From: Endomicrobium sp.
GTDB lineage: Bacteria > Elusimicrobiota > Endomicrobiia > Endomicrobiales > Endomicrobiaceae
Length of the DNA: 39,334 bases
Assembly (NCBI GenBank): GCA_031290625.1
Contig: JAITND010000016.1
Span: forward strand, 1 to 39,334
Direction of reading: 5' to 3'
Position 1 is the stretch's first letter; the number at the start of each line of letters is the position of its first letter. Shown here piece by piece: positions 1 through 11,496 of this stretch. The translations under genes and the position numbers were made by a program. The notes beneath the pieces are model-generated. The model was given only the letters and a program-made list of their open reading frames with translations, was not told where the DNA came from and searched no databases.

Positions 1-529
1 TTCTATACCTCTTTGAGCTTGTATACTTTCGTTATAACAATGTTTTATTTCCTTCATTTCAATAGCAATATCGGCGACGCTAAGCAAACTCTAAGGAGCG
101 ATTCTTCCGGTTACGACAATATTTGACTTCCGGGATAATTGTTTTAAAAGAGCTAAGAATTGTCTTTCATTTATAAATTTATCGCGTAAAGCTATATTAA
201 ATTCTTCCAAAACTATTAAATCGTACTCTTTAGGACTAACAGACGATGATTTTACTTTATCCATAGCTAAACAACAGTCGCTTTTTGCGTCTTTGACGCT
301 TACGTTTTTAAATAGATACGGGTGTTTTTTGGCAAACGAAAAAAATCCAAATTGCCTAGGATTGACAAAATTTTCTGTTCGCTGTAAAACTCCTCTCCCT
401 TAAATAATTGTTTCAGGCAAACTTTAAAACCTTGCCCTAATGAACGAATTATTTATCCTATAGCCGCCGTTGTTTTACCTTTTCCGCTACCAGTATTTAC
501 AATCATCAAAATAGAAAACCCGCCTTCAT
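1..529 (-). pseudogene. cobO: Cob(I)yrinic acid a,c-diamide adenosyltransferase (CobO/BtuR family), degraded and truncated by window edge
   Basis: Minus-strand translation gives [46 protein letters not shown]..., then ...SFAKKHPYLFKNVSVKDAKSDCCLAMDKVKSSSVSPKEYDLIVLEEFNIALRDKF...VVTGRIAP*SLLSVADIAIEMKEIKHCYNESIQAQRGIE. P-loop [10 protein letters not shown] and VVTGR.AP match the family. Two in-frame stops plus a frameshift at the A7 run 339-345. Confidence 0.8.
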
Positions 530-589
530 TTAAGAGAAAGCAGATTTTTCGTAACAAAACACAGTTACGTCAATAATATGCTTTTGTCT

Positions 590-1080
590 CTATTTTATTT
601 CCTTAAACATTTCTTTGGTCGCGCCGCATTTAGGACAACTTTCAGGAGGCTCGCTTCTTAAACGCTCATATCCGCATATCTCGCATTTCCATTTTTTATC
701 GGAAGTTTTTTTGCGCTTGGGTTAGAATAATCTATGCCGAACAGTTTGTCTTTTGGTCTGCTTTCAGGAATGGGACTCGTCTCTTTTTTACCCTCGTACG
801 CATCTTTAGATACGTATAAAGCGCAAAAGCCCGAACCGTATTTTTTTATATCGTTTTCCATGTATCTGCAGGGACAGATTAAATATGAATCCAAACCATA
901 AACGCTAGTTGAAAGCCTGCGCGGACACGAGGCGTATCCATAGCGTTTTAAATTAACGCAAAGATTCTTTAACAGCTCATTTACAAAAACAGAATTTTTA
1001 TTAAAATAATATCCTTTCGCTCGGGCGTTTTTTTTAAGATAAGCTATCAACTCTTCGTTAACGTTTATCCTTGTATTCAC
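590..1080 (-). pseudogene. Ferredoxin-thioredoxin reductase catalytic-chain-like protein with C-terminal rubredoxin-like domain, split by a 1-nt frameshift
   Basis: ORF 658..1080 has CPRR...CPCRY...GSGFCALYVS (FTR catalytic chain). The other frame supplies KKWKCEICGYERLRSEPPESCPKCGATKEMFKEIK*. The frames join if the T7 run (plus strand) at 706-712 were T8. GTG start overlaps the stop of the upstream glutaredoxin gene. Confidence 0.75.
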
Positions 1081-1356
1081 GCCAGCGCATCTTTTATTGC
1101 CTCAGGCTGGAAGCCGCCAATTGTTTTTGTTTTATTGATCACCATTGTAGGGAAACATCCCTGCGGATTTACTAACAACAACTCTTTCATAACTTTGTCT
1201 TGCTCGGCGCTTCCAAGTAAGTCAACGTCAACGTAATCGTATTTAATTCCCATGTCGACTAAAAGACGCTTTGTTTTTTTTACACCACACGTAAGTACTT
1301 AAAGTGTAAAGAAAAACCGAGTTCTTATCATTTTTCCTATCAACATAATTTATCAT
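1077..1356 (-). pseudogene. Glutaredoxin-like protein, frameshifted
   Basis: Frame-corrected translation MINYVDRKNDKNSVFLYTLSTYVWCKKTKRLLVDMGIKYDYVDVDLLGSAEQDKVMKELLLVNPQGCFPTMVINKTKTIGGFQPEAIKDALA*. Frameshift at T8 (plus strand) 1274-1281. Pattern ..WCKKTK, cis-Pro (FPT) and GG loop are glutaredoxin-like. Confidence 0.75.
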
Positions 1357-1440
1357 TTTAATCTCCTATCGCCGTAAAAATATATACGACTCAGATATAA
1401 AATATACGATTACCGCGTAAATTTAACCAAATTTTAATTT

Positions 1441-2133
1441 CTATATCAAATTATGTTCTTTAAAGCTAAAATAATCGTTATTTGAAACTATTATATGGTC
1501 TAAAAGAAGAACTTCTATCGCTTCTAATGCTTTCTTTACTGAAATTGTCGCGGCAATATCGCTTTGAGAAGGACTTAACGTTCCACCTGGGTGATTATGA
1601 GCTATTATTATAGAAGCTGCTTTATTGTTTAAAGCTATTTCCGCTATTTTTCTTGGTATGAGGAAAGATTTATTTACCGTGCCGCTTTCAAGCTCTTTGT
1701 AAAATATTACTCTGTTTCCAGAATCCAGCGTTAAAACATAAACTTTTTCTATTTTTTCTCCGCTTAAAGAGGAAATTAGAAAATCTTTCACTCTATCTGG
1801 AGAGTTTATTTCTTTTTGTCGTTTTACAGCGAGAGAAAGATATAAAGAGGATAGTTTTCTTAAAAATAGTAAAAATCCTGCGGAATAATCCGATAAATTT
1901 TTTATCTTTTTTAAATCGTTTATATCGGCATCTAAAACTTGTTTTAGACTGCCAAATTCTTGTATCAACGCTTTAGCTTGAGGCTTTACGTCTCTTCTGG
2001 GAATTACGTACGTAAGAACCAGTTCCAAAATTTCATAATCGGCAAGACCTTTAAAACCCGTTTCTAAAAACCTATTCCTGAGTCTATTTCTATGTCCGAT
2101 GTAGTGAGGTTTTGACTTTTTTTTAAATATCAA
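1441..2133 (-). CDS. radC: RadC/JAB-domain DNA repair family protein
   Basis: N-terminal HhH-like region and metalloprotease-like motif HNHPGGTLSPSQSD. Confidence 0.9.
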   Translation of the reverse strand: MIFKKKSKPHYIGHRNRLRNRFLETGFKGLADYEILELVLTYVIPRRDVKPQAKALIQEFGSLKQVLDADINDLKKIKNLSDYSAGFLLFLRKLSSLYLSLAVKRQKEINSPDRVKDFLISSLSGEKIEKVYVLTLDSGNRVIFYKELESGTVNKSFLIPRKIAEIALNNKAASIIIAHNHPGGTLSPSQSDIAATISVKKALEAIEVLLLDHIIVSNNDYFSFKEHNLI

Positions 2134-2170
2134 TAGTTTACCTTTTCTCGGATTTCTTTTTTATGAGACG

Positions 2171-2535
2171 TTATTTTTTTATTCCTAAAAAATTTTTCTT
2201 TTGCTCGTTTTGAACGCTTTTTTTCCGATTGCGTATTTTTTCTATCATTTGACGCTTTTTTGACAGTTCGCCGAGAATCTTTTCTTCTATCTTTCCAGCA
2301 AGCAATCGTCTTGCCAAAAATCTGTTTAATCCTTGCGTTCTTTCGCAATGGTTTACTTCCGCGCCAGTAGGCAAATGCTTTAAATAGACGACCGTAGACG
2401 CTTTATTGACATTCTGTCCGCCTTTGCTCGGCAAACGTACAAATTTTTTTCAATATCCGACTCTTTTATCGCATAACGTTCAAAAATTTTACCTACTTCA
2501 GCCTGTTTTTTTAAACTCGCGCCAAAATCTATCAT
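2171..2535 (-). pseudogene. RF-1 domain (GGQ) peptide-chain-release-factor-like protein, split by a 1-nt frameshift
   Basis: N-terminal frame MIDFGASLKKQAEVGKIFERYAIKESDIEK; C-terminal frame KFVRLPSKGGQNVNKASTVVYLKHLPTGAEVNHCERTQGLNRFLARRLLAGKIEEKILGE.... The frames join if the T7 run (plus) at 2444-2450 were T8. Corrected length is 122 codons, with a basic tail. Confidence 0.75.
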
Positions 2536-3146
2536 ATTAAAACCTTTTCTTCTTTAAGTTTTCTTACGAATTCATAAGGTTTAACAAACAAGCAAGCATT
2601 GATTCCGTTTCTCGCAGCAGCTTTAATATTTTCTTCCATATCGTCGGTAAAAAATATTTCCGAAGGCAAAATACCATAATGACTTATTAACTTTTTATAA
2701 ATTTTGTCTTCCGGCTTTCTCAAATGCATTTTATAAGAAAGAAAAAAATCATTAAAAAGAGCAAACACCTCGGGATAACGATCTTTCAAATAATTAAAAT
2801 GCAGCTCATTTGTATTTGACAGTATTGCAAGTTTATATTTACCTGCAAGCATAACTATCAATTCTATTGTTTCAGGCATGGGTTCAAAAATATTATTCCA
2901 GTGAAAAGAAAACTCATTATACGTCCCACTATATTCAGTTCGTTTAGCCAAAATATCATAGAAATCAAAAGAAGAAATATTGCCTTTTTCATAAGAATAC
3001 GCAAATTCAGAATACGTAGGAATCAGCTCGTTAAAATTAGCTATTTTGCGGTTAGGAATTTTTTGGACATAGGCTTTGACAAATTTCATTAAATCAAATC
3101 TGAATATAACATTGCCCAAATCAAATACAATAACTTTTGCAGACAT
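2532..3146 (-). CDS. HAD superfamily hydrolase (subfamily IA-like)
   Basis: Likely start at MSAKVIVFDLGNVIFRFD. Motifs DxG, LSNTNE, K(PEDKIY) and FTDDMEENI. Confidence 0.85.
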   Translation of the reverse strand: MSAKVIVFDLGNVIFRFDLMKFVKAYVQKIPNRKIANFNELIPTYSEFAYSYEKGNISSFDFYDILAKRTEYSGTYNEFSFHWNNIFEPMPETIELIVMLAGKYKLAILSNTNELHFNYLKDRYPEVFALFNDFFLSYKMHLRKPEDKIYKKLISHYGILPSEIFFTDDMEENIKAAARNGINACLFVKPYEFVRKLKEEKVLI

Positions 3147-3147
3147 G

Positions 3148-3843
3148 CTAAGCTCTCGGGTGGCGAATATCCTTGCCATGCACCATAAAAATTACATCTT
3201 CGCAAATGTTAGTCGCGTGATCGCCAAGCCGTTCTATGCTTTTAGCTATAAACATCAAGTCCGTTGCCAGTTGAATAGTATCCGAATCAGGCAATTTAAT
3301 CATCACTGTTTTCAATTCGCTTATAATTGCGTCTCTTAAACCGTCTACTTCGTTATCTTTAGATAAAACAGACATGGCTAAATCAGAATCGCTAGTATTA
3401 AAAGATTTTATACAATCTATAATCATACTTTGAACAATCCCTATCATCTTTGGAATATTGACGAGAGGCTTGACTTCAGGATACTTTATTAAATCTAAAG
3501 ACATCTTGGCTATGTTTAAAGACTCGTCTCCCATTCTCTCTAAATCGCTGTTGATTCGCATTGCCGAAGTTATAAATCTTAAATCCGCTCCCGCCGGTTG
3601 GTTTAAAGCTATAAGTTTTAAACATTTATCGTCAATAACTATTTCCTGAATATTAACTTCTTTTTCCAAAGAAAGAACCGTATCTATTTGATTGGGATCT
3701 CTGGAAACAAGCTCGTTAGTCGCCGCTTGTATCATTTTTTGAACAAGACCCGCCATATCAAGAAGATGATTTTGTAAGTTGCTCATTTCAACGTCAAAGC
3801 GCCGCATACCGGGTGCCTCCTTAACCAAATCTGCCGCTGACAT
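3148..3843 (-). CDS. phoU: Phosphate-signalling regulator PhoU
   Basis: Tandem PhoU helical repeats (MRRFDVEMSNLQNHLLDMAGLVQKMI...; RMGDESLNIAKMS; ERLGDHATNICEDVIFMVHGKD). Start may be MSAADL (3843) or MRRFDV (3807). Confidence 0.9.
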   Translation of the reverse strand: MSAADLVKEAPGMRRFDVEMSNLQNHLLDMAGLVQKMIQAATNELVSRDPNQIDTVLSLEKEVNIQEIVIDDKCLKLIALNQPAGADLRFITSAMRINSDLERMGDESLNIAKMSLDLIKYPEVKPLVNIPKMIGIVQSMIIDCIKSFNTSDSDLAMSVLSKDNEVDGLRDAIISELKTVMIKLPDSDTIQLATDLMFIAKSIERLGDHATNICEDVIFMVHGKDIRHPRA

Positions 3844-4612
3844 AATCGTCAGTCTCTTTTCTTGAGGGATTAGTAAATATTTTCTCAGTTTTATCAAACT
3901 CTATAAGCCTACCCATAAACATAAAAGCCGTCTCTTGCGAAACTCTGGCCGCTTGCTGCATATTGTGCGTTACTATTACTATCGTATAATTCTCTTTAAG
4001 CTTAATAATCAACTCTTCAATATTTCTCGTGGCAACGGGATCGAGAGACGAACACGGCTCATCAAGAAGAATAATACGCGGAGCTATAGCAATAACCCTT
4101 GCTATACAAAGCCTCTGTTGCTGTTCCAAAGTTAAAGATAACGCCGACTTACGAAGCTTATCTTTTATATCGTTCCATAACAAAACGGCTTTTAAACTTT
4201 TTTCTACTGTTTCATTTATAACGTCTTTATCCGAAGCTATTCTGTTTACTTTAAGACCAAAAGCCACATTTTCGTGAATTGAAATTGGAAAAGGATTAGG
4301 TCTTTGGAAAACCATTCCTACGTTTTTCCTTAATATATCTACATCGGTGTCTTCAGCGTAAATATTACGATTAGAAATATTTATTTCACCGACGGTATGA
4401 ACATCGTCTATTGTGTCATTAATTCTGTTTATAGACCTCAATAGCGTGGATTTCCCGCACCCTGAAGGACCTATCATGGCAGTTACGCGGTTTTCCCCTA
4501 TGCTTATGTTAATATCTTTAAGCGCATGAAAATCAGAATAATACAGATTAAAATTTTTTATTTCTATTATGGACATAACAAAACTACTCCTAACCTTTGC
4601 AATAACAAACAA
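3821..4612 (-). CDS. pstB: Phosphate ABC transporter ATP-binding protein PstB with altered signature motif
   Basis: Walker A GPSGCGKST, MVFQRPNPFPISIHENVAFGL, Walker B RIILLDEP, H-loop VTHN. The ABC signature reads LTLEQQQRL instead of LSGGQQQRL. Likely start is internal (MSIIEIKNF). Confidence 0.9.
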   Translation of the reverse strand: MFVIAKVRSSFVMSIIEIKNFNLYYSDFHALKDINISIGENRVTAMIGPSGCGKSTLLRSINRINDTIDDVHTVGEINISNRNIYAEDTDVDILRKNVGMVFQRPNPFPISIHENVAFGLKVNRIASDKDVINETVEKSLKAVLLWNDIKDKLRKSALSLTLEQQQRLCIARVIAIAPRIILLDEPCSSLDPVATRNIEELIIKLKENYTIVIVTHNMQQAARVSQETAFMFMGRLIEFDKTEKIFTNPSRKETDDYVSGRFG

Positions 4613-4615
4613 AGA

Positions 4616-5551
4616 TTAAAACCGCATATTTTTTAAAATATTTAAAGCAAGCTCTACCGAGTCTCTACCCTGTTCTCCTGAAACAGCGGGCTTTTTGCCT
4701 TCTATAACGCTGCTTATGAAGTTGTCCAATTCATAAAAAAGCGGCTCATTTGGCGGGAGTTTGGGTTTCTTTACATCTATATCAAAAAGCGACGCAATTT
4801 TTTCTCTTCCCTCTTTTTTTACATAAACTTTAAGATTTTTTCCAGCATAGTCTATTGAAACATAACTATCAGGCTGAAAAATCCTTATCTTCCTATACTT
4901 TTCCATAGAAACTCTGCTTGCAGAAACATCCGCCACACAACCGCCGGCATATCTTAATCTAACCTTAGCAATATCCTCAGTATCTGATAGAATTTTGGCT
5001 CCGTGAGCTTCCAAAGATACAACTTTATCTTTAACAAGATAAAACAATATGTCCAGGTCGTGTATCATCAAGTCTAAAACCACGCCGATATGATTAGTTC
5101 TTGGATCGTATGGTCCAAGCCTGTTAACCTCAATAAACTTAGGGCTGCTGATAAATGGAACGGCAGCTATAATTGCAGGATTAAATCTTTCAACATGACC
5201 GACTTGTAGAACTAAATTTCTAGATTTTGCTATTTCTATAAGTTCTTCCGCCTCAGCAACGTTTAAAGTAAAAGGTTTTTCCACCAAACAATGAACGCCG
5301 CTTTGTAGAAGAGGTTTTGCAACTTGATAGTGATACGGCGTCGGAACGGATATAACTGCAGCGTCGACGTCTCCGACAAGCTCATTAAAATCCGTTAAGT
5401 AATTTGTTTTGTTTGCTTTTGCTATTTTTTCAGCTCTTTCGGCGTCGGCATCTACAACAAATTCAAGTTTTGAATCATGGCGCTCCCCCAAAATTCTGGC
5501 GTGGTGTCGTCCTAGAGAGCCAACTCCTATTACCGCGGTCCTTATACTCAT
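4616..5551 (-). CDS. gnnA: Gfo/Idh/MocA-family oxidoreductase, likely UDP-GlcNAc 3-dehydrogenase GnnA
   Basis: Rossmann GVGSLGRHHARIL, LVEKPFTLN, GHVERFNP. Adjacent to an aminotransferase and lpxI/lpxA. Confidence 0.75.
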   Translation of the reverse strand: MSIRTAVIGVGSLGRHHARILGERHDSKLEFVVDADAERAEKIAKANKTNYLTDFNELVGDVDAAVISVPTPYHYQVAKPLLQSGVHCLVEKPFTLNVAEAEELIEIAKSRNLVLQVGHVERFNPAIIAAVPFISSPKFIEVNRLGPYDPRTNHIGVVLDLMIHDLDILFYLVKDKVVSLEAHGAKILSDTEDIAKVRLRYAGGCVADVSASRVSMEKYRKIRIFQPDSYVSIDYAGKNLKVYVKKEGREKIASLFDIDVKKPKLPPNEPLFYELDNFISSVIEGKKPAVSGEQGRDSVELALNILKNMRF

Positions 5552-6642
5552 TTTTTATAACTCTTTACTACTTTAATTATTTCGTCGACTTCCGCCGCTA
5601 AAAGCGACGGGTGGACAGGAAGAGACGCAACTTCCATCGCGGCTTTTTCAGCTTCTTTACAAAGACCAGATTTATATCCGAGTTTTTTATAAAGCGGCTG
5701 CTTATATATTACGCAAGGATAATAAACTCCGCTTCCTACGCCTTTATCAGCAAGATGCTTCATAAAACTCTCTCTTTCCTTTGAAGAAATTCTTACCGTA
5801 TATTGATGAAAAACATGCCTGCAATTTTCAGGAATATAAGGAGTTTGCAAAAACTCTAAATCTTTAAAAGCTTCATTGTATTTTTTTGCATTCGCTATTC
5901 TTTTTTCAATCCAACTTTCAAGCTGTTCAAGTTGAGCTATGCCTATAGCCGCAGCTAAGTTTGTCAGTCTGAAATTATATCCTAAAACTGTATGCGTAGA
6001 ACGCCCTTCTCTGCCATGGTTTATAATTTGCCTGCCGTATTTATCGGCTTTTGCGTCGTTTGTAAGAACTATTCCTCCTTCTCCGGTCATCATATTCTTT
6101 GTCGCATAAAAAGAAAACGCCGCAGCATTGCCAAAAGATCCCGCTTTTTTATTTTTAAATTCCGCTCCATGCGACTGGCAAGCGTCTTCTACAAGCTTAA
6201 ATTTATATTTCTTTTTCAACTTTACAATCGCGTCCATATTGCAAGTAAGCCCGTACAAATGCACTATTACGGCAGCTTTAACATTCTTTTCTTTTTTTAA
6301 CGTCTCTTCCAATTTAATAGGATCTATGTTAAAGGTTTTCGGATCAATGTCTACAAAAATTGGTTTTGCTCCGCAAAAAAGAATGGAGTTGGCAGTAGCT
6401 ATAAAAGTAAAAGGAGTAGTAATTACCTTGTCGCCGGGCTTAACGCCAAACATCAAAAGCGCCGTATGGATAGACGTAGTTCCGTTAGCGTTAGCTATGC
6501 CAAATTTAGCGCCGCAATAGTCTGCAAAAGATTGCTCAAATTGGGACACGTATTTGCCGCTCGCTAAAATTCTTGAATTCAAAACGTCATTTACCAACCG
6601 TCTTTCTCTCTCTCCGATAATCGGACAAGCAACATTTATCAT
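5548..6642 (-). CDS. gnnB: DegT/DnrJ/EryC1-family aminotransferase, likely GnnB
   Basis: NANGTTSIH, VEDACQSHGAEFKNKKAGSFG, SFYATKNMMTGEGG (PLP lysine). 4-nt overlap with gnnA. Confidence 0.75.
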   Translation of the reverse strand: MINVACPIIGERERRLVNDVLNSRILASGKYVSQFEQSFADYCGAKFGIANANGTTSIHTALLMFGVKPGDKVITTPFTFIATANSILFCGAKPIFVDIDPKTFNIDPIKLEETLKKEKNVKAAVIVHLYGLTCNMDAIVKLKKKYKFKLVEDACQSHGAEFKNKKAGSFGNAAAFSFYATKNMMTGEGGIVLTNDAKADKYGRQIINHGREGRSTHTVLGYNFRLTNLAAAIGIAQLEQLESWIEKRIANAKKYNEAFKDLEFLQTPYIPENCRHVFHQYTVRISSKERESFMKHLADKGVGSGVYYPCVIYKQPLYKKLGYKSGLCKEAEKAAMEVASLPVHPSLLAAEVDEIIKVVKSYKK

Positions 6643-6659: not shown

Positions 6660-7460
6660 TTATATTCCAATTATAGTCGTACCGAGCTTTTTCGCTTTTT
6701 CTATCGCTTCATCTTTATCCAACATCAAAGTAACGCCGGACTCTATCGCTATCGCTCTTACTTTGTTTTCTTTTAAAGTATTAATTGTGTTAAGCCCTAT
6801 AACGGGAACATCAAACCTAAAATCTTGATTTGGCTTTGCAACTTTAACAACTATAGAATTCGCTCCTCCAAGAGCATACGCTCTTTTAATACATTCATCC
6901 GTCCCTTCTACAGATTCCACTGCAAGAACAGACTTATCTTTCACAACAACAGTCTGACCTATATCAAACCCTGAAATATCTTTAGCTATCTTATATCCAA
7001 ACTCTACGTCTTTATTTTCATCTGAAGAAAGCTTCTTTCCGGCTATCAAACCTTTTGGAGCAAGCAAATGTTTTAGATAGGCGTGAGATACTATAAGATG
7101 CATTCCGTCCTTTTCAAATTCGTCGGCAATTGTTTTTAGGATTGTATCCGTTTTCTTATTTATCAAACTTCCCATTACTTTAATAGCGCGAAAGTCCATG
7201 CTTATAGCAGAATAAATTTTTACGTGTTTAACTTGACCCGCCGTTATAACAGTTTTTACATTTTCGCTTTTTAGAGCATCTATAATTTTTTGAAACTTTC
7301 CTACTGAAAGCCAATATGTTTTATCGCAGATTTTTTCCAAATCAGAATCGGCTTCTTCTTTTAGAGCAATGCAAATTACTCTATCGCCGCTTCTTTTTAT
7401 TTCTTCGGCAACCAAAAACGGAAATCTGTTGTTTCCTGCTATCAAGCCTATATTTTCCAC
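6660..7460 (-). CDS. lpxI: UDP-2,3-diacylglucosamine pyrophosphatase LpxI
   Basis: MENIGLIAGNNRFPFLVAEEI... and DMHLIVSHAYLKHLLAPKGLI-type LpxI (DUF1009) features; lipid A operon context. Confidence 0.9.
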   Translation of the reverse strand: MENIGLIAGNNRFPFLVAEEIKRSGDRVICIALKEEADSDLEKICDKTYWLSVGKFQKIIDALKSENVKTVITAGQVKHVKIYSAISMDFRAIKVMGSLINKKTDTILKTIADEFEKDGMHLIVSHAYLKHLLAPKGLIAGKKLSSDENKDVEFGYKIAKDISGFDIGQTVVVKDKSVLAVESVEGTDECIKRAYALGGANSIVVKVAKPNQDFRFDVPVIGLNTINTLKENKVRAIAIESGVTLMLDKDEAIEKAKKLGTTIIGI

Positions 7461-7483: not shown

Positions 7484-8248
7484 CTATCCGGGTCTGGCAA
7501 TACCTCTTTTAGAATTTTTAATAAACGTTACTATTTCTTGCACCGCTATAGATTTACTTTGTCCAAGCTCTGACAAAGCGTCTTTAAGCATTAACTTTGA
7601 CATAAAAAGAGCGCGGTACGCCTCTTTCACAGCGTTAATTTCTTCCGTAGGCATTTTCCTTCTTCTCATACCTACCAAGTTCAAACCGTTCGGCGCAGCT
7701 CTATATCCCGCGCACAAGACGTAAGGAATTATATCCATTGTTACAGTAGCGCCCGAGCCAACCATAACGCCCTTTCCGACTTTAGTAAACTGATGCAAAC
7801 CTACGGTAGCGCTTACAAAAGCGTCATCTCCAACCTCTACATGTCCACCTATTGCAGAACAATTTGCAACAATAACATTGTTACCTACTCTAGCGTCGTG
7901 AGCTGCGTGCGATGACGCCATAAAATAACAATTTTTTCCTATGATTGTTTTTCCCGTCTTGGCAGATCCTCTGTTAAAAGTTACGAACTCTCTGGCTACG
8001 GTCCCGTCGCCTACGCAAACTCTTGAAGGTTCATCTTTATAGCTTAAATCCTGAGGAGCTGTTCCAATAGAAGCTGAATGGTAAATTTTACAATTCTTAC
8101 CGATTTCGGCGTATTGTATGTAAGCGTTTGAACCAATAATGGCGCCATCGCCTATTACAACATCTTTACCTATCACCGTATAAGCGCCTATTACGACATT
8201 GTCGCCTATAATAACAGATTTATCAATTATCGCAGTTTGGTGTATCAT
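7484..8248 (-). CDS. lpxA: Acyl-ACP--UDP-GlcNAc O/N-acyltransferase LpxA, copy 1 (diverged)
   Basis: Left-handed beta-helix hexapeptides; SSHAAHDA and VGLHQFTKVG catalytic region; GLNLVGMRRRK. Reads QDLSYKDE where copy 2 has QDLKYQGE. Confidence 0.88.
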   Translation of the reverse strand: MIHQTAIIDKSVIIGDNVVIGAYTVIGKDVVIGDGAIIGSNAYIQYAEIGKNCKIYHSASIGTAPQDLSYKDEPSRVCVGDGTVAREFVTFNRGSAKTGKTIIGKNCYFMASSHAAHDARVGNNVIVANCSAIGGHVEVGDDAFVSATVGLHQFTKVGKGVMVGSGATVTMDIIPYVLCAGYRAAPNGLNLVGMRRRKMPTEEINAVKEAYRALFMSKLMLKDALSELGQSKSIAVQEIVTFIKNSKRGIARPG

Positions 8249-8250
8249 TT

Positions 8251-9021
8251 TTACCCCTGTTTTGGTCTGGCAATACCTCTTTTGGAATTTTCTATAAAAA
8301 GTATCATTTCTTTAACATATTGAGACGATGAGTCCTTAAGCTTAACAACAGCGTCTTCCAGAGACAATTTTGACATAAACAATATTTTGTAAGCGTCTTT
8401 TATATCTTCAATTTCTGAAAGTTTTACTTTTTTTCTTTTTAAACCTATGAGATTTAAACCGACAAGAACGGCTCTATCGCCTTGAGCCGTTACATATGGA
8501 ACAATATCCATGCTTACCATTGAACCCGCGCCGATAATTACGGATTTCCCAATTTTGCAAAATTGATGGACGCCTATTCCAGAGCTTAGTATAGCACCGT
8601 CATCTATTTCAACATGACCCGCAATACCTGTAGAATAGCCAATTATAACGTTATCGCCTATTATAGAGTCGTGAGCAATATGAGCGCAAGCCATAATTAA
8701 ACAGTTTTTACCTACAACAGTCCGACCGGCGGCCGCAGTGCCTCTGTTTAAAGTAACGCTCTCTCTGATAGTTGTTCCATCGCCGACTACAACTTTCGTT
8801 TTTTCGCCTTGATATTTTAAATCCTGAGGACGTTTGCCTATTGACGAAAAATTAAAAATTTCGCAGTTATGTCCTATTTCGGCATATTCAATTACAGATT
8901 GACCATGTATTTTTGTTCCGCTTTTTACAACAGTATCCGTACCCATAACGGCATAAGGACCTATTTCCACATTATCCTCTATAACAGCGCTTTTATCTAT
9001 TATAGCCGTTTGATGTATCAT
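8251..9021 (-). CDS. lpxA: Acyl-ACP--UDP-GlcNAc O/N-acyltransferase LpxA, copy 2 (canonical motifs)
   Basis: PQDLKYQGEKTKVVVGDGTTIRESVTLNRGT, CAHIAHDS, IGVHQFCKIG, GLNLIGLKRKK. Tandem with copy 1; shared C-terminus NSKRGIARP. Confidence 0.9.
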   Translation of the reverse strand: MIHQTAIIDKSAVIEDNVEIGPYAVMGTDTVVKSGTKIHGQSVIEYAEIGHNCEIFNFSSIGKRPQDLKYQGEKTKVVVGDGTTIRESVTLNRGTAAAGRTVVGKNCLIMACAHIAHDSIIGDNVIIGYSTGIAGHVEIDDGAILSSGIGVHQFCKIGKSVIIGAGSMVSMDIVPYVTAQGDRAVLVGLNLIGLKRKKVKLSEIEDIKDAYKILFMSKLSLEDAVVKLKDSSSQYVKEMILFIENSKRGIARPKQG

Positions 9022-9117: not shown

Positions 9118-10461
9118 TTATTTCTCTCTGTCTACAATAATAAACATAAACTCAGCTTCCGTCGCTAATTTCCCGTCAACATAAGCTTCGCCTCTTATCT
9201 TTCCGTGTTTTCCGCCGTTTTTGATAATTTTAACTTTTAACTCAAGCAAGTCTCCGGGTTTTACGGGTTTGCGAAATTTTGTTTTATCTATAGACATAAA
9301 ATACGCAAGCTTTCCCTGCATTTCGGGCTTGGATAGAAACATAACGCACGAGGTTTGAGCCATAGCCTCAACTATTAGAACGCCTGGCATAATCGGTGCG
9401 CCCGGAAAATGTCCCTGAAAAAAACCTTCGTTGCCGCTAACACACTTATAGCCTATAGCTTTAGTAGTCTCTGCGCTATTAATTTTAACTTTATCTATCA
9501 TTAAAAACGGATATCTATGCGGTATATGTTTTAGAACTTCTTCGTGGGATAGAATTCTTTCCGTTCCCGCCGTTTCGCAATTTACGTTCATTGTGACCTC
9601 CGTTTGTCCATCTTCTTCTATAACCGCTTCTTCTAAGAATGCTTTTACAAAAGCAATATTATTTTGATGTCCAGGCTTATCTGCAACTATTTTGGCTTTT
9701 ATCGGTTTACCAGCAAGGTACAAGTCTCCAATTAAGTCCAAAACTTTATGCCTTACAAACTCGTCATCGTAACGCAAAGGTTCTTTATTATGAATGCCGT
9801 TTAATCCCAAAACAATAGCATTGTCCATAGAGCCGCCAAGGGCAAGACCATTATTTTGAAGAGCCTCTATCTCATAGTCAAAGCAAAACGTTTTAGCAGG
9901 AGCAATGTTGTTTAAATAATCGTCCTTGCTTATGCTCCCAAAAGACATTTGTTGAAATTTTAATAGCGGATGATCAAAACCTATAGTACAGTCTATTTCA
10001 AATTTATCTGAAGGGTAAGCCGTTATTTTAGTTTTTCCAGACTCGAAATGAATAGGTTTCTTTATTACATAATATTGTTTCGGAGAATCCAGCGCTTTTA
10101 GTCCGCCCTTCAACAAAGTTTCCGCTATTATTTTTGCGCTGCCGTCAAGAATTGGAGGTTCGTTGTTGTTTATCTCTATAATTAAATTATCAATGCCAAG
10201 CGCGGCGCATGCCGACATTATATGTTCTATCGTATGAATTCTAACGCCGTCTTTCTCTATAACGCTGCCTCTAACAACAAGTCCTGAAGCCGCATTGGAA
10301 TAAAGAGCCGCAATTTCAGGTTTATTTGGCAAATCTACCCTGATAAATTTTATACCAAATCCAGCGGCGGCAGGTTTAAAAACCACAACGCTTTTATTTC
10401 CCGTGTGGATACCAATGCCTTCAACGGAAACTTCTTTCACAATAGTCGCTTGTTTTGCCAT
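9118..10461 (-). CDS. lpxC/fabZ: Bifunctional UDP-3-O-acyl-GlcNAc deacetylase / 3-hydroxyacyl-ACP dehydratase (LpxC-FabZ fusion)
   Basis: LpxC Zn motifs HTIEH and RHKVLDLIGD; FabZ HRYPFLMIDKV and FQGHFPGAPIMPGVLIVEAMAQ in one ORF. Confidence 0.95.
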   Translation of the reverse strand: MAKQATIVKEVSVEGIGIHTGNKSVVVFKPAAAGFGIKFIRVDLPNKPEIAALYSNAASGLVVRGSVIEKDGVRIHTIEHIMSACAALGIDNLIIEINNNEPPILDGSAKIIAETLLKGGLKALDSPKQYYVIKKPIHFESGKTKITAYPSDKFEIDCTIGFDHPLLKFQQMSFGSISKDDYLNNIAPAKTFCFDYEIEALQNNGLALGGSMDNAIVLGLNGIHNKEPLRYDDEFVRHKVLDLIGDLYLAGKPIKAKIVADKPGHQNNIAFVKAFLEEAVIEEDGQTEVTMNVNCETAGTERILSHEEVLKHIPHRYPFLMIDKVKINSAETTKAIGYKCVSGNEGFFQGHFPGAPIMPGVLIVEAMAQTSCVMFLSKPEMQGKLAYFMSIDKTKFRKPVKPGDLLELKVKIIKNGGKHGKIRGEAYVDGKLATEAEFMFIIVDREK

Positions 10462-10467
10462 TTAAAT

Positions 10468-11496
10468 TTACTTATCCTCCAAATCTTTCTTTATTTTTCT
10501 TAAATCAGAATACATTTCAGGAAGTTTTCTCATTAAGACTCTTATCTTTATGCTTTGATTCAGCGAAGACATGGGATTACCGCCGACAACATCTCCATCT
10601 TTAACATTTCCGGAAATACCAGATTGGCCTGAAATCATAACATTATCGCCTATTTTTATATGTCCCGCAATTCCAGTCTGTCCGCCTATTGTCACATTAT
10701 TGCCTAAATGGGTAGAGCCGGATATTCCAACTTGCGAAACTATTATGCAATTCTCGCCTACTTGAACATTGTGGGCTATCATGACAAGATTGTCTATTTT
10801 TGCGCCGTTTCCTATTCTCGTAGCGTCAACAGTAGCTCTGTCAATTGTAGTATTAGAGCCTATCTCAACATCATTGCCTATTTCTACCCTTCCTATTTGA
10901 GGAATTTTCTGAGTTTTGCCATCAACAGAAACAAATCCAAAACCATCGCCCCCGATAACAACTCCTGGCTGCAAAACAACTCTGTCGCCTATCAAAGAAT
11001 TTTCTCTTATTACGACATTAGGGTATATAAGACAATCTTTGCCGATTTTTACGTCTCTGCCTATGTAAACGTTAGGAAAAATTTTAGCGTTGTCTCCAAT
11101 TTCAGCGCCGCACTCAATTACAACGTTTTGCCCTATATAAGGGTCTTTGCCGATTTTGACTTTATCAGATATTGCCGCCGAGCGATGAATTTTTTTATTT
11201 ATTAAAGATAATCTTCCTTTCTCTATAATGGAAAGAACCATACTGTACGCATACTTAGGATTTTTAACTTTGATTATGTTTTTATTTTTGAACTGGACAA
11301 CGTCAGTATTAAGCCCGACAAGAATAACGCCAGCTTGAGTATTTAGCGCATCATGAAGATATTTTAAATTCTCAAGAAAAGAAACTTCATTGTTTTTTGC
11401 TTCTAAAAGACCATTTACGCCTGTTAAAACAACGTCTTTATCGCCAATAAGTTCGCCTGAAACAACCGCCGCAAGCTCAAATGCTGTAAACCTCAT
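10468..11496 (-). CDS. lpxD: UDP-3-O-(3-hydroxyacyl)glucosamine N-acyltransferase LpxD
   Basis: N-terminal LpxD domain; hexapeptide repeats; [36 protein letters not shown]. Confidence 0.95.

What the first reader, a model, noticed from the sequence alone, without database searches (positions are those of the whole stretch)
7484..9021. Tandem lpxA duplication with divergence in the active-site region of one copy
Both copies keep the HxAHD and HQF histidine motifs, the G(L)N and R positions and the same C-terminal NSKRGIARP, but copy 1 reads QDLSYKDE where copy 2 and E. coli-type LpxA read QDLKY.GE (the Lys corresponds to E. coli K76, known to be important). At the acyl-chain ruler position (E. 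coli G173) I read Ser in copy 1 and Ala in copy 2. Inference: one copy may be specialised for UDP-GlcNAc3N versus UDP-GlcNAc, or for a different acyl chain, next to gnnA/gnnB.
Basis: partly seen in the sequence, partly recalled or inferred. Interest (0 to 1): 0.66.

Follow-up and report, generated by a model that had tools for sequence, protein, structure and literature searches.

The report
Twin LpxA enzymes, one lacking K76
A termite-gut endosymbiont bacterium carries two side-by-side copies of LpxA, the enzyme that starts lipid A (endotoxin) synthesis; one copy has lost a sugar-binding lysine in the way seen in bacteria that build lipid A on a diamino sugar, so the pair probably divides the work between two sugars, which is testable but not yet proven.

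Summary
Two adjacent, intact lpxA genes (54% identical) sit in an lpxD–lpxC/fabZ–lpxA2–lpxA1–lpxI–gnnB–gnnA cluster of a termite-gut Endomicrobiaceae genome (Elusimicrobiota). Copy 1 has Ser and copy 2 Lys at E. coli K76.

One duplication inside the family produced two clades. Copy 2 is Lys in 41/41 sequences; copy 1 is Ser/Gly/Asn/Cys in 36/36. Both are under purifying selection.

The residue-76 change recurs in Campylobacter-like genomes (Ser/Gly) and Leptospira LpxA (Gly), both linked to 2,3-diaminoglucose (GlcN3N) lipid A. It comes with an aromatic residue at 116 and often a new lysine in the next loop (67/80 sequences without K76, 0/158 with it).

Best explanation: copy 1 is biased towards UDP-GlcNAc3N and copy 2 is the general enzyme, giving mixed or hybrid lipid A. 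Strict division is not supported: relatives that kept only copy 2 retain gnnAB, single-copy outgroups pair K76 with gnnAB, and S76 Campylobacter lacking gnnB exist. An acyl-chain split is a live rival, because copy 1 of this genus often has Val/Ile/Leu at the ruler position.

Paired lpxA plus gnnAB with a hybrid backbone is known in Capnocytophaga canimorsus, so this is a new variant of a known kind.

The parts
7484..8248 (-). lpxA1 (copy 1): LpxA paralogue with Ser69 in place of E. coli K76, G-S-A-K in the coil-5 loop, Tyr108 at E. coli 116, Ser at E. coli 173
   Evidence: AF2 model pLDDT 96
8251..9021 (-). lpxA2 (copy 2): LpxA with the canonical Lys69 (K76); Ala at E. coli 173; upstream gene of the pair, stop codon 2 nt before the lpxA1 start
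   Evidence: AF2 model pLDDT 97
8042..8044 (-). codon 69 of lpxA1 (AGC, Ser) = E. coli K76
8815..8817 (-). codon 69 of lpxA2 (AAA, Lys) = E. coli K76
6660..7460 (-). lpxI, UDP-2,3-diacylglucosamine hydrolase
   Evidence: Pfam LpxI_N and LpxI_C
5548..6642 (-). gnnB, DegT-family aminotransferase (would make UDP-GlcNAc3N with GnnA)
   Evidence: Pfam DegT 387 bits; synteny with lpxA/gnnA across the family; below the PseC equivalog cut-off, so the name rests on synteny
4616..5551 (-). gnnA, Gfo/Idh/MocA oxidoreductase, overlaps gnnB by 4 nt
   Evidence: Pfam GFO_IDH_MocA; best NCBIfam model UDP-GlcNAc 3-dehydrogenase (archaeal), below cut-off; synteny
9118..10461 (-). lpxC-fabZ fusion
   Evidence: NF009667 472.6 bits, above cut-off 465
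10468..11496 (-). lpxD
   Evidence: TIGR01853 358 bits, above cut-off

Best explanation
The pair is a functional LpxA duplication inside a lipid A operon. Copy 2 (K76) is the ancestral, general UDP-GlcNAc acyltransferase and probably still tolerates UDP-GlcNAc3N. Copy 1 became biased towards UDP-GlcNAc3N, the 3-amino sugar nucleotide made by GnnA/GnnB from the same operon, by losing the lysine that touches the sugar ring oxygen and rebuilding the neighbouring loop and pocket. Running both gives lipid A with both ester- and amide-linked 3-hydroxyacyl chains, that is a hybrid or mixed GlcN/GlcN3N backbone. Shown here: duplication, residue changes, selection, synteny, natural losses. Inferred: the substrate bias and the lipid A product.
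For: Copy 1 and copy 2 are sister clades (100/99 support each) from one duplication within Endomicrobiaceae. Residue 76: copy 2 K in 41/41, copy 1 never K in 36/36; single-copy outgroups K in 12/12. dN/dS is 0.08-0.25 for copy 1 and 0.08-0.37 for copy 2, similar to lpxD and gnnAB. L. interrogans LpxA (PDB 3hsq, titled for its sugar-nucleotide selectivity) has Gly at 76; C. jejuni LpxA (3r0s) has Ser, and C. jejuni makes a hybrid GlcN3N-GlcN lipid A with GnnA/GnnB (PMC8036547). Non-K76 LpxA arose about 6 times on the tree, 4 forced by well-supported branches. gnnA is adjacent or present in Endomicrobiaceae, Campylobacter/Sulfurospirillum-like genomes, Nitrospinaceae and one Desulfuromonadales lineage. 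Residue 116 is F/Y in 75/80 non-K76 and 8/158 K76 sequences. The fourth residue of the next loop is Lys in 67/80 non-K76 and 0/158 K76. K76 contacts the glucosamine ring oxygen in E. coli LpxA (PMC6286764). G001 lost copy 2 to multiple stops but keeps copy 1, gnnAB and lpxB. G158 has decayed gnnAB and no copy 1.
Against: Five reduced relatives (G090, G096, G104, G112, G130) lost copy 1 but keep intact gnnA, gnnB and lpxB, so a K76 enzyme apparently copes with UDP-GlcNAc3N. Single-copy K76 relatives with gnnAB are common. About half of the S76 Campylobacter sampled have at most a diverged gnnA-like gene; 17 of 19 tested lack a close gnnB, so S76 does not forbid O-acylation. The literature reports that C. 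jejuni gnnA/gnnB inactivation alters lipid A behaviour rather than being lethal (PMC8036547). The Lys/aromatic association rests mainly on two large clades, so its nominal p value overstates the evidence. Whole-fold comparison does not separate the copies: 3hsq is the top PDB hit for both.
Confidence: 0.5

Rival explanations
1. The copies split by acyl-chain length or type: copy 1 has a shortened hydrocarbon ruler and places a shorter 3-hydroxyacyl chain, and the K76 change is secondary.
For: At E. coli G173, copy 1 of this genus is V 10, S 8, T/L/I/A 1 each of 22, while copy 2 is A 24, G 2 of 26; in other genera copy 1 is mostly A/G. Larger residues at G173 shift E. coli LpxA to C10 chains (PMC6286764). 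Segatella copri authors read their two LpxAs this way (PMC12643348).
Against: K76 loss is on the stem of the whole copy 1 clade, whereas bulky 173 residues appear mainly within one genus, so the ruler change is later and not universal. It does not explain the recurrence of K76 loss in other gnnAB lineages.
Confidence: 0.22
2. Both copies work on both sugars; the duplication gives dosage, or heterotrimers whose active sites combine residues of both subunits.
For: Genes are 2 nt apart and probably co-translated. LpxA active sites lie between subunits (PMC6286764). Either copy can be lost in relatives.
Against: Dosage does not explain fixed opposite states at residue 76 and about 20 other separated sites. 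AlphaFold modelling of the Segatella pair favoured homotrimers (PMC12643348).
Confidence: 0.16
3. Copy 1 has left lipid A synthesis and acylates another UDP-amino sugar, as the LpxA-like N-acetyltransferase Pcryo_0615 does.
For: 8e62 is an LpxA-fold N-acetyltransferase for a 2,3-diamino sugar and appears among the fold matches.
Against: Copy 1 keeps the complete C-terminal LpxA domain, passes the LpxA equivalog cut-offs, keeps the active-site histidines and sits in the lipid A operon; 8e62 covers only part and matches copy 2 equally. G001 keeps only copy 1 together with intact lpxD, lpxI and lpxB.
Confidence: 0.06
4. Copy 1 is a decaying or inactive duplicate.
For: It has been lost in one clade; three copy 1 sequences have H160V and single ones have lost D74 or H144.
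Against: dN/dS 0.08-0.25, intact reading frames throughout the clade, H122/H125 invariant and H144 nearly so.
Confidence: 0.06

Closest known systems
Capnocytophaga canimorsus lpxA/lpxA' with gnnA/gnnB
   Same: Two lpxA genes clustered with lpxC and lpxD, gnnAB in the genome; lipid A has a hybrid GlcN3N-GlcN backbone (PMC3342949).
   Different: C. canimorsus itself could not be read here. Two sampled Bacteroidota tandem pairs (G310, G404) keep K76 in both copies and differ at 144/160 instead, so that duplication has a different signature.
Leptospira interrogans LpxA (PDB 3hsq/3i3a/3i3x)
   Same: Lacks K76 (Gly), has Tyr at 116 like copy 1, and a lysine in the coil-5 loop; [quoted passage not shown]
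   Different: The loop lysine is one position earlier; Gly instead of Ser; independent branch; a paralogue in the Leptospira genome was not looked for.
Campylobacter jejuni LpxA (PDB 3r0s) and GnnA/GnnB
   Same: QDISYK(D/E)E loop almost identical to copy 1 QDLSYKDE; Lys at loop position 4; Phe116; hybrid lipid A.
   Different: Single LpxA; gnnBA not next to lpxA; independent origin on the tree.
Escherichia coli LpxA
   Same: Copy 2 keeps K76 and the catalytic set; overall fold.
   Different: Asn instead of His99; Ala at 173; the window genome also carries gnnAB.
Segatella copri two LpxA homologues
   Same: Two catalytically complete LpxAs about 45% identical in one genome (PMC12643348).
   Different: Interpreted as acyl-chain diversification; locus tags far apart, so not a tandem.

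Membership tests
LpxA (acyl-ACP--UDP-N-acetylglucosamine acyltransferase) | Score above curated LpxA equivalog cut-offs plus hexapeptide beta-helix and C-terminal Acetyltransf_11 domain | tested here: met
   Both copies: TIGR01852 and NF003657 above cut-off; PF00132 and PF13720
LpxA (acyl-ACP--UDP-N-acetylglucosamine acyltransferase) | Catalytic and binding residues H122, H125, D126, G143, H144, H160, Q161, N198, R204 | tested here: met
   All present in both window copies
LpxA (acyl-ACP--UDP-N-acetylglucosamine acyltransferase) | LpxA fold | tested here: met
   AF2 models pLDDT 96 and 97; PDB LpxA hits with TM about 0.96
Canonical K76 UDP-GlcNAc O-acyltransferase subtype | Lysine at E. coli position 76 | tested here: not met
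   Copy 1: Ser; not met in any of 36 copy 1 sequences. Copy 2: Lys, met
UDP-GlcNAc3N-using LpxA (Leptospira/Campylobacter-like) | K76 replaced by Ser/Gly, aromatic residue at 116, extra Lys in the coil-5 loop | tested here: met
   Copy 1 meets all three; copy 2 none. This sequence signature was derived here and is not an established definition
UDP-GlcNAc3N-using LpxA (Leptospira/Campylobacter-like) | gnnA and gnnB in the genome | tested here: met
   Adjacent in window; whole-genome hits
UDP-GlcNAc3N-using LpxA (Leptospira/Campylobacter-like) | Measured preference for UDP-GlcNAc3N | not testable with these tools
   Needs purified enzymes
Two-LpxA hybrid-backbone system (C. canimorsus type) | Two lpxA genes plus gnnAB in one genome | tested here: met
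   Window and more than 30 further Endomicrobiaceae genomes
Two-LpxA hybrid-backbone system (C. canimorsus type) | Lipid A with one GlcN and one GlcN3N | not testable with these tools
   No lipid A analysis of any Endomicrobiaceae was found in the papers searched
GnnA/GnnB | Curated family model at or above cut-off | tested here: inconclusive
   Best models (NF040723 for GnnA, PseC for GnnB) score below their cut-offs; no dedicated GnnA/GnnB model was hit; assignment rests on fold family and synteny

The most novel reading that the evidence does not exclude
LpxA sugar-nucleotide choice follows a repeatable sequence code, in which lysine leaves position 76, a lysine appears in the next extended loop, and residue 116 becomes aromatic. 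Endomicrobiaceae duplicated LpxA so that one copy keeps the ester (UDP-GlcNAc) code while the other adopts the amide (UDP-GlcNAc3N) code, the same solution that Campylobacter and Leptospira reached separately.
Probability: 0.3. Interest if true: 0.65.

Novelty: new variant of a known kind. Interest (0 to 1): 0.48.

Why it matters
The linkage (ester or amide) of the primary acyl chains affects how lipid A is sensed and how it resists antimicrobial peptides, yet which residues make an LpxA choose the amino sugar is poorly defined. Here the ancestral and altered enzyme sit side by side in one operon, with relatives that lost one or the other, and the altered one carries changes that recur in Campylobacter and Leptospira. 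That turns the question into a small set of residue swaps and one lipid A analysis in the cultured free-living relative Endomicrobium proavitum. It also predicts that termite-gut endosymbionts living inside protist cells carry an unusual lipid A.

Tried and rejected
(1) Strict co-occurrence test (copy 2 only means no gnnAB): failed; single-copy genomes usually keep gnnAB. (2) Structure ranking as a discriminator: 3hsq ranks first for both copies; only the C. jejuni hit moves (rank 2 against 28), so not used as evidence. (3) Recombination of the active-site region from a Campylobacter-like gene: rejected, copy 1 is closer to copy 2 (0.51-0.57) than to Campylobacter in every segment, 0.57 against 0.54 in the closest one. 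(4) Horizontal acquisition of copy 1: rejected by the tree. (5) Window gnnA as a probe in Campylobacterota was too distant; a Campylobacter GnnA was used instead. (6) An apparent 33/37 against 16/64 gnnA association in Campylobacterota shrank when the diverged gnnA-like genes without gnnB were recognised. (7) Bacteroidota pairs as an independent test of the K76 rule: both copies K76, so no support there. (8) A second alignment put a gap at loop position 104 for copy 1; the lysine was therefore recounted from the residue at position 101 in ungapped sequence: 67/80 instead of 72/80. (10) The Leptospira LpxA structure paper (PMC2710806) is not held.

Full report
WHAT IS THERE. The window is from a termite-gut Endomicrobiaceae genome (Elusimicrobiota). 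Its closest named relative is Candidatus Endomicrobiellum porotermitis, 97% identical in copy 1. All seven genes of interest are on the minus strand in the order lpxD (10468-11496), lpxC/fabZ fusion (9118-10461), lpxA2 (8251-9021), lpxA1 (7484-8248), lpxI (6660-7460), gnnB (5548-6642), gnnA (4616-5551). lpxA2 stops 2 nt before the lpxA1 start codon, and gnnB and gnnA overlap by 4 nt, so one operon is likely (inference). Both LpxAs pass the curated LpxA cut-offs and have the full two-domain architecture. AlphaFold models are confident, pLDDT 96 and 97. The GnnA and GnnB names rest on fold family and synteny; no dedicated model reached its cut-off.

THE OBSERVATION. At E. coli K76, copy 1 has Ser69 and copy 2 Lys69; at G173, copy 1 has Ser and copy 2 Ala; the active-site histidines, Asn198 and Arg204 are kept in both. 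In E. coli LpxA the K76 side chain contacts the glucosamine ring oxygen (PMC6286764).

ORIGIN. A maximum-likelihood tree of 131 LpxAs puts copy 1 (35 rows) and copy 2 (40 rows) as two clades, 100/99 support each, that are sisters (99/87) within Endomicrobiaceae. Single-copy relatives from rumen and other habitats, and Proendomicrobium, branch outside. So there was one duplication inside the family. Copy 2 is Lys at 76 in 41/41 sequences, single-copy outgroups 12/12; copy 1 is Ser 83%, Gly 8%, Asn 5%, Cys 2% of 36, never Lys. The change is on, or close to, the stem of copy 1. Pairwise dN/dS is 0.08-0.25 for copy 1, 0.08-0.37 for copy 2 and 0.03-0.32 for lpxI, gnnAB and lpxD, so copy 1 is maintained.

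NATURAL LOSSES. One clade of small-genome relatives (G158, G090, G104, G112, G096, G130) sits inside copy 2 and has lost copy 1. Five of them keep intact gnnA and gnnB; in G158 only gnnAB remnants are left. G001 is the reverse: its lpxA2 is riddled with stops and frameshifts while lpxA1, lpxI, gnnB, gnnA, lpxD and both parts of lpxC/fabZ read through. LpxB is intact in all of these. In G017 the whole cluster is broken, as reported for E. trichonymphae Rs-D17 (PMC4505116). I found no genome with copy 1 and without gnnAB other than fragmented assemblies. This is one-sided support: copy 1 seems to go with gnnAB, but copy 2 clearly can live with gnnAB alone.

THE SAME CHANGE ELSEWHERE. Leptospira interrogans LpxA (3hsq; [quoted passage not shown] From my own knowledge, not held here, that enzyme was reported to be selective for UDP-GlcNAc3N. 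C. jejuni LpxA has Ser, and C. jejuni makes a hybrid GlcN3N-GlcN lipid A using GnnA/GnnB (PMC8036547). In 101 Campylobacterota genomes 37 lack K76 (35 Ser, 2 Gly) and form one clade on the tree sample. Many K76 genomes also have gnnA. gnnAB therefore looks permissive for losing K76 and does not require it.

A WIDER SIGNATURE. Sequences without K76 also have Phe/Tyr at 116 in 75/80 cases against 8/158 with K76. They have Lys as the fourth residue of the next extended loop in 67/80 against 0/158, and usually D/N/E instead of Gly at 79. Leptospira has the loop lysine one place earlier. Segment identities argue against import of this region from Campylobacter into copy 1, so the resemblance looks convergent. 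It rests mainly on two large clades, and the Fisher p value (2e-46) is inflated by relatedness. That the loop lysine compensates for K76 is an inference; I could not measure the distance in a trimer.

WHAT CUTS AGAINST A STRICT SPLIT. Apart from the copy 2-only relatives, about half of the non-K76 Campylobacter have at most a diverged gnnA-like gene; where its neighbourhood was checked (5 genomes) no gnnB lies within the 5 kb examined. 17 of 19 such genomes lack a close gnnB anywhere. In those the S76 enzyme must use UDP-GlcNAc, if they make lipid A. So residue 76 marks a history with, and probably a preference for, UDP-GlcNAc3N; it is not an on/off switch.

THE ACYL-CHAIN RIVAL. At the ruler position, copy 1 of this genus is often Val, Ile or Leu and copy 2 is Ala/Gly, but in the other genera copy 1 is mostly Ala/Gly too. 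Chain-length tuning may have been added later in the endosymbiont genus; both effects could be real.

COMPARISON WITH WHAT IS KNOWN. Two lpxA genes with gnnAB and a hybrid backbone were described in Capnocytophaga canimorsus (PMC3342949). lpxA duplications are known elsewhere, for example Geobacter sulfurreducens (PMC3087551), Psychrobacter cryohalolentis (PMC4557000) and Segatella copri (PMC12643348). New here, as far as the searched papers show, are the family-wide tandem with fixed opposite residue-76 states, its single origin and reciprocal losses, and the shared loop/116 signature. Two tandem pairs in sampled Bacteroidota keep K76 in both copies, so the code is not universal for lpxA pairs.

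VERDICT. Observation confirmed. Interpretation partly supported: sugar-nucleotide bias is the best single reading (0.5), with strict division disfavoured and acyl-chain specialisation the main rival.

Noticed in passing
G000 contig C15:1-8000 (L136): A second partial gnnB plus complete gnnA (89% aa) lies on another contig of the same MAG, colinear with window 1-5816 at 83% nucleotide identity; a 1.6 kb stretch further on is 95% identical to L035. Probably a co-binned second Endomicrobiellum strain or a mosaic.
   Followed up: partly
L130 (G070, another family of the order): A separate tandem lpxA pair, both K76, one with Asp74 replaced by Ser (PQSIKYKNE), followed by lpxI-gnnB-gnnA: an independent duplication next to gnnAB.
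   Followed up: no
L303/L304 (G404, G310, Bacteroidota): Tandem lpxA copies that differ reciprocally at active-site positions: one H144/L160, the other F144/H160; both keep K76.
   Followed up: no
L315-L319 (Campylobacter-like genomes G495, G563, G477, G501, G538): A diverged gnnA-like gene (26-32% to Campylobacter GnnA) without gnnB in the 5 kb examined; in L315 it sits before a hemH-like ORF as in gnnB+ relatives; one copy (G538) has an internal stop. Looks like stepwise loss of the GlcN3N pathway.
   Followed up: partly
L048, L051, L061, L065, L135 and others: The lpxC-fabZ fusion of the window is split or frameshifted at the LpxC/FabZ junction in several relatives, with both halves otherwise readable.
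   Followed up: no
L037, L038, L040 copy 1 (8001-8759, 8001-8759, 3276-4034): Copy 1 in three close relatives has Val in place of His160, a residue listed as essential in E. coli LpxA.
   Followed up: no
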